10,368 nucleotides of DNA, from NCBI GenBank assembly GCA_003153655.1, contig PMAK01000009.1, positions 1 to 10,368 of the forward strand, in the 5' to 3' direction. Below, piece after piece: positions 4,585 to 6,532 of this stretch. Under the pieces are notes generated by a model, which saw only the letters and a program-made list of their open reading frames with translations, had not been told where the DNA came from and did not search any database. Within the stretch, counting starts at the first letter, position 1. Each line of letters starts with the position of its first letter. Made by a program: the position numbers and the translations under genes. Source of the DNA: Phycisphaerales bacterium. Lineage in GTDB: Bacteria; Planctomycetota; Phycisphaerae; Tepidisphaerales; Tepidisphaeraceae.

Positions 4585-5334
4585 TCAGGGAATCGAGGCC
4601 TGGTACATTGAATTGTCGTTGGAAATGAAGCCGGTGCCGGCGACGACCTGGGGTATGAGTGATGTGAATCGTTGATAGAGGGTTTCGGCGTGGCCGTCGC
4701 AGAAGGCGATATTGGTGCCGCCTCTGTGGCGGAAGCCCTGGGTGCCGGCCCATGTTGAGGTGAAGCTGAAGATGAGATCGTCGGGGCCGGGGATTGGGGA
4801 GCGCATGAACTTGTCGGCGCCGGCGGAGTATTGGCCGTCGCCGAAGAGGGCGCAGCGGGATGGGCGAGTGACCTGGTTTAGTTTGGCGGGGGCGGCGGTG
4901 GTTGAGCCGGATTGTCCGCCACCGATGTAGCTGTCGTTGTAGTTGTAGCCGGTGTAAGGATCGTTTGGTGCGTTGCTATTTCCGGAGAATGAGGGGCATT
5001 GTTGAATCTGAGTGTTGGTGCTGCCTTGCCACAAAATGCCGGGAGTCACGGTGACCTGCCCGCTTGAGAGCGTGCGGGTCACCGTGAAATCCCAGTTGTA
5101 ACTGACCATCTGCGTCGAGCCGAGGTCGGTGTAATAGGCAATTGGGTATTGCCCGTTGTACGCATCGGCGTAGTTATGAACCGCGATCACCATCTGGCGA
5201 AGATTGCTAAGGCAGTTGAGGGTCAGCGCCTGCTGCCTGGCGGTTGAAAGGGCCGGAAGCAGGAGGCCGATCAATACCGCGATGATCCCGATGACCACCA
5301 GCAATTCGACCAGTGTGAACGCTTTCTTCGCCAT
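4585..5334 (-). CDS. Type II/IV prepilin-like protein, H-X9-DG type (DUF1559-like pseudopilin)
   Basis: This 249-residue protein starts with a short basic leader and the prepilin signature KKAFTLVELLVVIGIIAVL. A prepilin peptidase would cut before F6, and E10 is the conserved Glu at +5. The residue at -1 is Ala (A5) instead of the usual Gly. The hydrophobic alpha-helix spans about 6-28. The rest is a globular, Asn/Tyr/Gly-rich domain with Cys at 41, 113, 161 and 212. Near the C-terminus is FRHRGGTNIAFCDGHAE, with H203 and D213-G214 fitting the H-X9-DG motif of pseudopilins that are greatly expanded in Planctomycetes. It lies 12 bases after the PEP-CTERM gene and is almost surely co-transcribed under the cobalamin riboswitch. 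The ribosome binding site is weak, so coupling is likely. Its specific role is unknown. Confidence 0.92.
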   Translation of the reverse strand: MAKKAFTLVELLVVIGIIAVLIGLLLPALSTARQQALTLNCLSNLRQMVIAVHNYADAYNGQYPIAYYTDLGSTQMVSYNWDFTVTRTLSSGQVTVTPGILWQGSTNTQIQQCPSFSGNSNAPNDPYTGYNYNDSYIGGGQSGSTTAAPAKLNQVTRPSRCALFGDGQYSAGADKFMRSPIPGPDDLIFSFTSTWAGTQGFRHRGGTNIAFCDGHAETLYQRFTSLIPQVVAGTGFISNDNSMYQASIP

Positions 5335-5346
5335 GGATCGGCTCTG

Positions 5347-6168
5347 TTATGAAAGACGGCGGCGACGGCTTACGGCCAAGAGCGCCAGCGGGAGCAATAT
5401 AGCTGCCGTGGGTTCCGGGACAGCCTGGGCGGAGATGCCGTCGATGGTCATGCGTTCGTCGGTGCCGGCCGGGACGGAGAACTCGACGTATTGAAAGCTG
5501 GTGAGTCCGGTGCCGCTGAGATCCAGCCAGTTTCCGCCTGCTGATCCGTTGAAGAGGGCGCGGATCTGGTCGTAATTCAGGCCGTTGAGATCACTGAGGG
5601 TTCCGACGAATGGTTGGCCGAAGTTGGCTAGTTCCGTTCCGCTTGGCTGAAAGTAGCCGCTGATCTCGGTGTCGAGATAGGCATTGGTCGGGAGGTCGAA
5701 GGATTCATCGCCGACAGGGAACCAGTCGGTGCCGTTTTGGCTGATGCTGACGGTTGCTTCGGGGATGGGTGAGAAATAGCTCGCCGGATTGCTTGCGACA
5801 CCGGATCCGTCGGATGAGACGTCGTCGAGGCCGTTGTTGACGAATACGCCGAGGGCTGGGACGGAGGTGATGGCGGCGGGCTGGGCGAAGGAGAATTCGA
5901 CGCTGCCGCCGGCGGGAATCACGACGATATCGTTTGTCTCAAACGGTGGATTGAAGGGGTTGATGGCCCCGAATTCCTCGTCGGTAGTTGGAGCGCCGAG
6001 GGCGGCGGTGGGATCGTTCCACGCATTGGTTGTGCTATCGCCGAGGCCGGAGGAATTGACCACACTCGTGGCGTAAATCGTCCCGGCGATGGACCGGGAG
6101 GAAATTGCCGCGGACAAGACCACAAAAAAGACGGACGACTTCTGCGCAATCGGAGAAAACGGGGACAT
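5347..6168 (-). CDS. PEP-CTERM sorted surface protein under a B12 riboswitch
   Basis: This is a 273-residue exported protein. The ATG at 6168 is preferred over one 27 bases upstream because GAGGAGA lies 5 bases before it. Residues 11-29 form a signal peptide (VFFVVLSAA...SIAG). The C-terminus is a typical PEP-CTERM tail: VPEP at 250-253, a hydrophobic stretch (TAAILLPLALLAV) and RRRR at 268-271, which an exosortase would process so that the protein reaches the outer surface. The body is Asn/Gly/Ser-rich and probably all beta. NDPTAALGAP (51-60), VSISQNGTDWFPV (140-152) and a YVEFSVP strand followed by MTIDGISAQA recall discoidin-like surface domains; that is a resemblance, not an identification. 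It is the first gene after the cobalamin riboswitch and is followed by a pseudopilin after 12 bases. A corrinoid-binding role is inference only. Confidence 0.9.
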   Translation of the reverse strand: MSPFSPIAQKSSVFFVVLSAAISSRSIAGTIYATSVVNSSGLGDSTTNAWNDPTAALGAPTTDEEFGAINPFNPPFETNDIVVIPAGGSVEFSFAQPAAITSVPALGVFVNNGLDDVSSDGSGVASNPASYFSPIPEATVSISQNGTDWFPVGDESFDLPTNAYLDTEISGYFQPSGTELANFGQPFVGTLSDLNGLNYDQIRALFNGSAGGNWLDLSGTGLTSFQYVEFSVPAGTDERMTIDGISAQAVPEPTAAILLPLALLAVSRRRRLS

Positions 6169-6243
6169 GAGAATCTCCTCGCAACATGGCGACATGGCTG
6201 AAAGCGGAAGCGCGCACGCTCCGCAACAGGGGTCGCAAGCCTG

Positions 6244-6279
6244 AAAAAATAATTGCGTTTCCGAAAGCTGATTCGCGCA
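6244..6279 (-). terminator. Candidate riboswitch terminator (expression platform)
   Basis: On the minus strand TGCG-CGAA, a TCAGCT loop, TTCG, a GAAA bulge and CGCA form an interrupted 8-bp stem (6254-6279), followed at once by ATTATTTTTT (6244-6253). It lies about 46 bases after the B12 box and about 75 bases before the gene start, the right place for transcription attenuation. The bulge makes it weaker than a classical terminator. Confidence 0.5.
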
Positions 6280-6325
6280 GCCCGATCGGACATGGCTTCA
6301 GGAAGAGCAACGGCTCATCCCACAT

Positions 6326-6492
6326 GGCAGGCAGGTCTTCTGGCTCGTGATATCCGGCCTCGTCTTCCCGGCGCCACTTGTCTATCAGTGGTCACCAGTG
6401 ACTAATTGAGTTCCGGTCGGGCTTTTCTTTCGCCCGCTCAAGATCACTTACAGCGGCGCGTCCGCGGCGGATTTTAACCGCCTTCCCTGACG
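6326..6492 (-). promoter_or_regulatory. Cobalamin (B12) riboswitch
   Basis: Read on the minus strand, the hallmark elements occur in order. CAGGGAAGGCGG, then TTAAAAT and CCGCC form the first core helix (about 6466-6489). GACGCGCCGCTGTAAGTG (6445-6462) matches the conserved core ending in CTGTAA. A GC-rich hairpin, CGGGC-loop-GCCCG, lies at about 6418-6438. CACTGATAGACAAGTGG and CGCCGGGAAGACG form the next arm. The B12 box AGCCAGAAGACCTGCCTGC lies at about 6327-6345. In this RNA family, adenosyl- or methylcobalamin binding usually switches the downstream genes off. Those genes here are the PEP-CTERM protein at 6168 and the pseudopilin behind it. The identification is by eye; an Rfam covariance-model scan for the cobalamin family would settle it. 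Confidence 0.9.
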
Positions 6493-6503
6493 CCTGCGCG
6501 GAC

Positions 6504-6532
6504 AAGAAAGCAAATTCGTATGATGATGTCAA
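6504..6532 (-). promoter_or_regulatory. Promoter of the riboswitch transcript
   Basis: On the minus strand a perfect -35 TTGACA (6527-6532) is followed after 17 bases by a weak -10 TTTCTT (6504-6509). An A/T-rich run just upstream of the -35 (about 6534-6546) could act as an UP element. Transcription would start near 6497, a few bases before the riboswitch, which fits well. The poor -10 keeps confidence moderate. Confidence 0.55.

What the first reader, a model, noticed from the sequence alone, without database searches (positions are those of the whole stretch)
4585..6532. B12 riboswitch controls a PEP-CTERM surface protein and a pseudopilin
A well-formed cobalamin riboswitch with its own promoter leads a two-gene operon whose products are an exosortase-sorted surface protein and an H-X9-DG pseudopilin. 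Cobalamin riboswitches normally sit before B12 synthesis, transport or B12-independent enzyme genes. Regulation by B12 suggests the pair acts in corrinoid capture or delivery at the cell surface, perhaps replacing or helping an outer-membrane receptor. The regulation is read from sequence; the function is inference.
Basis: partly seen in the sequence, partly recalled or inferred. Interest (0 to 1): 0.82.

Follow-up and report, generated by a model that had tools for sequence, protein, structure and literature searches.

The report
B12-switched surface vitamin-capture operon
A vitamin B12-sensing RNA in a planctomycete sits in front of genes for a surface protein distantly related to known B12-binding proteins and for a pilus-like protein, an arrangement seen again and again across a class of bacteria that mostly seem unable to make B12 and often lack the usual kind of outer-membrane B12 receptor.

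Summary
A cobalamin riboswitch (RF00174, 68.7 bits, 6512-6313 minus), the only one found in its genome, precedes a PEP-CTERM protein and an H-X9-DG/DUF1559 pseudopilin. Behind 30 riboswitches picked by score alone, 22 have a relative of the PEP-CTERM protein or a DUF4465 protein within 6 kb, 26 the pseudopilin, 20 both. Of 63 homologues in genomes with a listed riboswitch, 54 match 118-1030 bp behind it. The PEP-CTERM protein is a remote relative of the B12-binding domain of Bacteroides BtuH/BtuG1 (profile-profile 97%, score 75.6; best of 100 shuffles 21.4). Sister operons carry DUF4465 (BtuJ-type) proteins; one DUF4465 protein of this class was reported to bind B12 (PMC13398666). CbiC, a corrin-ring synthesis marker, is in 4 of 298 genomes; 172 of 298 show no TonB-type barrel, though the window's own genome has three. 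Likeliest: a B12-repressed surface corrinoid-capture system. The dedicated pseudopilin is the new part; its role in uptake is untested.

The parts
6527..6532 (-). TTGACA hexamer, candidate -35 of a promoter ahead of the riboswitch (weak -10-like TTTCTT at 6509-6504)
   Evidence: Read from sequence; the consensus scan called no promoter. Weak.
6313..6512 (-). Cobalamin riboswitch aptamer, full length; B12 box AGCCAGAAGACCTGCC at 6345-6330
   Evidence: RF00174 68.7 bits, E 1.2e-15; only one found in the genome; B12 box located
6169..6312 (-). Leader between aptamer and gene 1; Shine-Dalgarno-like GAGGAG at 6180-6175; expression platform not identified
   Evidence: Sequence; no terminator-like site there; no unusual fold of 6330-6150 (z 0.12)
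5347..6168 (-). PEP-CTERM secreted protein, 273 aa from the likely start at 6168 (the mechanical ORF starts at 6195, 282 aa); signal-peptide-like N-terminus, discoidin-like beta-sandwich remotely homologous to the BtuH/BtuG1 C-terminal B12-binding domain, PEP-CTERM tail
5356..5424 (-). PEP-CTERM sorting signal of gene 1 (residues 258-280 of the 282-aa ORF)
   Evidence: TIGR02595 16.7 bits against cutoff 16, residues 259-280; PF07589 residues 258-280 but below cutoff
4585..5334 (-). Type IV pilin-like pseudopilin, 249 aa, DUF1559 with N-terminal methylation motif and H-X9-DG; falls among riboswitch-linked pseudopilins, apart from the sampled paralogues
4681..4734 (-). H-X9-DG motif of the pseudopilin (residues 201-218)
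   Evidence: TIGR04294 23.5 bits against cutoff 19

Best explanation
This is a B12-repressed operon for scavenging corrinoids at the cell surface. When internal B12 is low the riboswitch lets the operon be expressed. Gene 1 is secreted and attached to the surface by exosortase through its PEP-CTERM tail, and its discoidin-like domain, a distant relative of the Bacteroides BtuH/BtuG1 domain, binds corrinoid. Gene 2 is a dedicated pseudopilin that serves this capture protein: either it helps export and display it through a secretin-type apparatus, or it forms part of a fibre that hands captured corrinoid through the outer membrane. A BtuFCD-type ABC importer finishes the job inside. Shown here: the riboswitch, the class-wide linkage, the remote homology, the grouping of riboswitch-linked pseudopilins, the near-absence of a corrin-synthesis marker, and in the genomes sampled a secretin, an exosortase, a FecCD permease and (in most) the MetH domain. 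Inferred: repression by B12, corrinoid binding by this protein, surface location and the pseudopilin's job.
For: Riboswitch. Linkage: of 63 homologues in genomes with a listed riboswitch, 54 match 118-1030 bp behind one on the same strand. Within 6 kb behind all 25 riboswitches of the order: capture-type gene (c0 = relatives of gene 1, or DUF4465) 20, pseudopilin 19, both 17. Behind 30 chosen by score: 22, 26, 20. Homology to BtuH without signal peptide and PEP-CTERM: probability 97.0, score 75.6 over 61 columns; reversed profiles 13.9 and 12.9, best of 100 column shuffles 21.4, DUF4465 18.7; against six BtuG1 C-terminal domains 94.95. Best of 177,635 PDB sequences is that BtuG1 domain, though E is only 0.034; it is also the only Foldseek hit at E <= 0.001 (9.2e-4). 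A BtuH2 B12 contact (Asn399, PMC8941943) aligns with Asn120, present in 38 of 50 and 67 of 97 aligned sequences. Sister operons encode DUF4465 with PEP-CTERM (L124, E 1.5e-51); single proteins join c0 to DUF4465 (L086) and c0 to a beta-propeller (L187). A DUF4465 protein of Mucisphaera calidilacus (Phycisphaerae) retained B12 on purification (PMC13398666). The same riboswitch type leads what reads as cobC-cobU-cobT-cobS-btuF-btuC-btuD in a family member (L095; names read by me from sequence, the permease by PF01032). CbiC in 4 of 298 genomes; MetH domain in 49 of 60; FecCD permease in 60 of 60; secretin and exosortase in 26 of 26 each.
Confidence: 0.72

Rival explanations
1. The pair is a B12-regulated attachment or biofilm module: gene 1 is a glycan-binding lectin-like surface protein and gene 2 part of an adhesive pilus, switched on when B12 is scarce so that the cell settles near B12 producers. 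No corrinoid is bound.
Against: Profile-profile comparison finds the BtuH/BtuG1 B12-binding domain well above controls, and it tops the PDB profile search; sister operons add DUF4465 proteins, and in L086 one is joined to c0. No glycan-binding family was compared profile to profile.
Confidence: 0.13
2. The pseudopilin is a secretion helper only: it aids export of the neighbouring secreted protein, and B12 enters through a TonB receptor or porin elsewhere in the genome.
For: The pseudopilin follows varied secreted genes (c0, DUF4465, dockerin-like or propeller proteins); secretins in 26 of 26 genomes; the window's genome has three TonB barrels; riboswitches of G198 (L188), G044 and G032 have a TonB barrel downstream at 1.1, 1.0 and 5.9 kb (a lower bound because only part of the barrel places was compared).
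Against: In L089, L105 and L120 the pseudopilin follows the riboswitch with no capture-type gene detected; 39 of 54 genomes with a riboswitch-adjacent c0 have no detectable TonB barrel.
Confidence: 0.4
3. The linkage is a neighbourhood accident: the riboswitch regulates something else and the pair is a bystander.
For: Other riboswitches in the class lead classical kinds of target.
Against: A capture-type gene and the pseudopilin both lie within 6 kb behind the riboswitch in 20 of 30 loci chosen by riboswitch score; the genome shows no other RF00174 match; the neighbouring ORF on the same strand ends at 6654, upstream of the riboswitch.
Confidence: 0.03

Closest known systems
Bacteroides BtuH2 / BtuG1 C-terminal domain (PDB 7biz, 8blw; PMC8941943, passages; PMC10404256, search listing only)
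   Same: BtuH and BtuG1 genes lie in riboswitch-bearing B12 loci (PMC8941943); remote homology of the core; one B12-contacting Asn has a counterpart; BtuG1 joins a beta-propeller to this domain, and Phycisphaerae have both as neighbours or joined (L187)
   Different: PEP-CTERM or dockerin-like ends where the Bacteroides proteins are lipoproteins; other contact residues not found; no TonB barrel in the window operon; pseudopilin partner
BtuJ / DUF4465 (PF14717) B12-binding proteins (PMC12751083, PMC13398666)
   Same: Occur in sister riboswitch operons of the class, some with PEP-CTERM; a Phycisphaerae member reported to bind B12
   Different: The window's own protein is not DUF4465 (profile score within the shuffle range)
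BtuB-TonB outer-membrane B12 uptake
   Same: Serves B12 entry in Gram-negative bacteria (recalled, established knowledge); some class members have a TonB barrel behind the riboswitch
   Different: No TonB barrel in the window; none detected in 172 of 298 class genomes
Type II secretion / type IV pilus pseudopilins and planctomycetal DUF1559 proteins
   Same: N-methylation motif, long N-terminal helix; best but weak structural match is a full-length type IV pilin (E 0.011)
   Different: Riboswitch-linked groups separate from the 20 sampled paralogues

Membership tests
Cobalamin riboswitch RF00174 | Full covariance-model match above the gathering score | tested here: met
   68.7 bits against 31.5, positions 1-189 of 189
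Cobalamin riboswitch RF00174 | Ligand-dependent control of expression | not testable with these tools
   Needs a reporter assay
PEP-CTERM / exosortase substrate | C-terminal PEP motif, hydrophobic stretch, basic tail; exosortase in the genome | tested here: met
   TIGR02595 16.7 bits, cutoff 16, but Pfam PF07589 below cutoff; exosortase in 26 of 26 genomes including the window's
BtuH / BtuG1-CTD B12-binding domain | Sequence homology | tested here: met
   HHalign 97.0, score 75.6 against at most 21.4 in controls; only over a 61-column core; PDB profile search E 0.034 alone would not suffice
BtuH / BtuG1-CTD B12-binding domain | Same fold | tested here: inconclusive
BtuH / BtuG1-CTD B12-binding domain | B12-contacting residues (Gln333, Asn399, His476, Tyr510, Trp511, Trp577 of BtuH2) | tested here: inconclusive
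   Asn399 counterpart present in 38 of 50 and 67 of 97 sequences, no Gln333 counterpart seen, the others lie outside the aligned core
BtuH / BtuG1-CTD B12-binding domain | Binds B12 | not testable with these tools
   Needs purified protein
DUF4465 (BtuJ) | PF14717 match | tested here: not met
   No match in the window protein at E <= 1; score 18.7 against the DUF4465 profile, within the range that shuffled BtuH profiles reach
Type IV pilin-like pseudopilin | Prepilin N-terminus and H-X9-DG | tested here: met
   PF07963 23.9, PF07596 36.7, TIGR04294 23.5 bits, each above its cutoff
BtuB-TonB uptake system | TonB-dependent barrel in the operon | tested here: not met
   None among the window ORFs scanned; the genome's three barrels lie on other contigs

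The most novel reading that the evidence does not exclude
In Phycisphaerae a riboswitch-controlled, TonB-independent outer-membrane route takes up B12: exosortase-anchored corrinoid-binding proteins (BtuH-like, BtuJ-like, propellers) load a dedicated pseudopilin fibre that retracts through a secretin, replacing BtuB in a class that almost never makes corrinoids.
Probability: 0.3. Interest if true: 0.95.

Novelty: new variant of a known kind. Interest (0 to 1): 0.8.

Why it matters
B12 uptake across an outer membrane is taught as a BtuB-TonB affair. Here a bacterial class in which a corrin-ring synthesis marker is nearly absent (4 of 298), and which often shows no TonB barrel (172 of 298), keeps a riboswitch operon of secreted proteins related to known B12 binders together with its own pseudopilin. 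It gives a regulated, testable candidate for what planctomycetal pseudopilins do and for how vitamins or macromolecules enter these cells, a route that PMC5394234 calls unclear. It also extends the Bacteroides surface-capture principle to a distant phylum with a different anchor.

Tried and rejected
Rejected: that the window protein is a DUF4465 protein (profile score 18.7, within the shuffle range). An apparent A1-A4 match (97%) came from the shared PEP-CTERM tail and vanished after trimming (0.89%).

Weak: similarity of the c2 propeller to the BtuG propeller, 6.9% with score 30.7 against a best of 22.1 in 40 shuffles; I do not claim homology. Foldseek with the pseudopilin model gave no hit at E <= 0.001. 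Folding part of the leader gave no signal (z 0.12). The PDB search with the single window sequence gave only two hits, E 0.87 and 1.7, taken as chance.

TonB and c0 presence are negatively associated (c0 with TonB 34, c0 without 80, no c0 with TonB 92, neither 91; odds ratio 0.42, p 7e-4), but relatedness is not corrected for, one of the 298 genomes is not in that table, and the window's own genome runs against the trend. The tree does not show one origin for the riboswitch-linked pseudopilins: four separate clades, one origin merely not ruled out, bootstrap not settled. Of 70 loci with a c1 gene or counted with them (69, plus L110), 64 entered; the length and N-terminal motif filters dropped L104, L123, L132, L187, L194 and L196.

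The own TonB barrel in L160 matched only colicin I receptors in the PDB at E <= 0.01; the other two own barrels were read but not searched.
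Full report
What is there. The minus strand of the window holds, in order, a full-length cobalamin riboswitch (6512-6313; RF00174, 68.7 bits, gathering score 31.5, E 1.2e-15), a PEP-CTERM protein (ORF 6195-5347; likely start 6168, because GAGGAG lies just upstream, and six of the nine closest homologues are 273 aa), and 12 nt later a prepilin-like protein (5334-4585) with N-methylation motif, DUF1559 and H-X9-DG, each above its curated cutoff. The PEP-CTERM call passes TIGR02595 (16.7 against 16) but not the Pfam cutoff (13.2 against 20.7). 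Then comes a MoxR-type ATPase that is unlikely to belong. No other RF00174 match was found in the genome (88% complete). A TTGACA lies at 6532-6527, but the consensus scan calls no promoter, and no terminator between aptamer and gene.

Where it comes from. Some close homologues are labelled Tepidisphaeraceae; that this family lies in Phycisphaerae is recalled, so the class name is inference.

Is it conserved? RF00174 is found in 274 of 298 genomes of the class and 23 of 26 of the order. Homologues of the PEP-CTERM protein at E <= 0.001 are found in 114 of 298. Using 172 riboswitch places printed, 54 of the 63 homologues in those genomes match 118-1030 bp downstream on the same strand; 9 do not. 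For a count blind to the protein I took all 25 riboswitches found in the order (window included) and the 30 best-scoring ones of the class, and searched 6 kb downstream with profiles of this family (c0), the pseudopilin (c1), a beta-propeller (c2) and DUF4465 (c5). Order: c0 19, c5 3, either 20, c1 19, either plus c1 17, none 3. Top 30: c0 22, c5 6, either 22, c1 26, c2 9, either plus c1 20, none 2. The empty cases: L087 leads a ribonucleotide reductase small chain, L095 what reads as a cob salvage and btuFCD operon, L188 a 699-aa ORF in which a TonB barrel lies, and L097 and L192 run out of contig after 339 and 894 bases. Of the six top-30 loci with c1 but neither c0 nor c5, L117, L118, L184 and L189 have a secreted-looking dockerin-like ORF and L183 a different PEP-CTERM ORF ahead of it, and L120 has the pseudopilin alone. 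A further 25 loci, mostly chosen through c0 and so biased, gave c0 24, c1 24 and c2 17. The profiles were built partly from these same loci, so these are annotation counts, not independent tests. By a simple pattern, 39 of 50 c0 or c5 ORFs in the order and top-30 sets end like PEP-CTERM proteins.

What travels with it. Five loci, and more, carry a DUF4465 protein; the six tested match PF14717 at E 6.2e-55 to 4.7e-38. DUF4465 proteins bind B12: BtuJ1 and BtuJ2 (PMC12751083: abstract and two sections read) and six divergent members including one from Mucisphaera calidilacus (PMC13398666: passages and one section), which the taxonomy places in Phycisphaerae. PMC12751083 also reports that 88 of 824 family members carry IPR013424, which I recall to be PEP-CTERM. 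One protein joins c0 to DUF4465 (L086), another joins c0 to a PQQ-type propeller (L187), the domain pair of BtuG1 in the other order. c2 itself shows only weak similarity to the BtuG propeller.

The pseudopilin. In 8 genomes the window pseudopilin matches 11-60 places each; the riboswitch-linked copy ranks first in 6 (one of them the window itself) and second in 2 (G054, G041). Against 20 sampled paralogues, all 64 linked copies examined have another linked copy as best hit (L110 is counted although its contig ends before any riboswitch; six loci were dropped by filters). In a tree of 84 proteins the linked copies form four supported clades of 5, 18, 19 and 22 rows, with no sampled paralogue inside any; 4 label changes against 18.2 in shuffles (0 of 500 as low); one origin is neither shown nor excluded. 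Read, ten of the eleven loci with DUF4465 (L086, L088, L092, L115, L119, L124, L179, L182, L185, L190) sit in the 22-row clade; L133, whose DUF4465 gene is in a second operon, does not. Of 16 tree rows whose locus has a strong propeller hit (E below 1e-100), 15 sit in the 19-row clade, and L112 in the window's 18-row clade. It looks as if pseudopilin and capture protein evolve together; this was compared by eye, not tested against relatedness. The pseudopilin model (pLDDT 81.5) resembles a full-length type IV pilin only weakly (E 0.011).

Physiology. CbiC, a marker of corrin-ring synthesis, is found in 4 of 298 genomes. Of 60 chosen genomes, 49 have the MetH domain PF02965 and 60 a FecCD permease; the window's genome has one, next to a reading frame that looks like btuF. 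FecCD also serves siderophores, so its substrate is not shown. Secretin and exosortase were found in 26 of 26 chosen genomes each. TonB-type barrels are found in 126 of 298 genomes and in 9 of 26 relatives, the window's genome among them with three. Of 54 genomes with a riboswitch-adjacent c0, 39 have no detectable barrel. PF00593 may miss divergent barrels.

How it most likely works. Low B12 relieves the riboswitch; the capture protein is exported and fixed by exosortase; it binds corrinoid; the pseudopilin either displays it or carries corrinoid inward; a BtuFCD-type importer completes uptake. Only the genetic anatomy is shown. PMC5394234 (passages) reports fibres that bind dextran and an unclear route across the outer membrane in other planctomycetes, which makes the fibre idea worth testing but does not support it directly.

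Is it in print? Searches of the held open library found one paper with 'cobalamin riboswitch' and 'PEP-CTERM', in which the PEP-CTERM genes follow c-di-GMP riboswitches; four with 'cobalamin riboswitch' and 'pilin', none on this by listing; nine with cobalamin, planctomycetes and riboswitch and eight with BtuB, planctomycetes and cobalamin, by listing only except passages of PMC2667541, none seen to describe this; three with PEP-CTERM, vitamin B12 and surface, by listing; four with DUF1559 and planctomycet, passages of one; none with DUF4465 and PEP-CTERM. Most subscription papers are not covered.

Verdict. New variant of a known kind: riboswitch-controlled surface B12 capture, with a different anchor and a dedicated pseudopilin.

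Noticed in passing
window 4503-2921 (-): Downstream MoxR ATPase and a following gene recur behind the pseudopilin in nine loci (clusters c3, c4), in five followed by a large protein of 663-800 aa (c6); probably an unrelated conserved neighbour.
   Followed up: partly
L087: A riboswitch of the same type leads a ribonucleotide reductase small chain, a classical kind of B12-riboswitch target.
   Followed up: partly
L095 3473-9087: Riboswitch-led operon that reads as cobC-cobU-cobT-cobS-btuF-btuC-btuD in a genome with no detected TonB barrel; its second riboswitch (L105) is followed by the pseudopilin alone.
   Followed up: partly
L133: Two B12 boxes (2408 and 5499), each followed by a c0-type or DUF4465 gene set.
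   Followed up: no
L128, L117, L118, L184, L189: Riboswitch-linked secreted proteins ending in dockerin-like repeats instead of PEP-CTERM; Pfam Dockerin_1 below cutoff in L128, L117 and L118, L184 and L189 by eye.
   Followed up: partly
L165, L166: An exosortase gene lies about 5 kb from the FecCD permease in two genomes of one genus.
   Followed up: no
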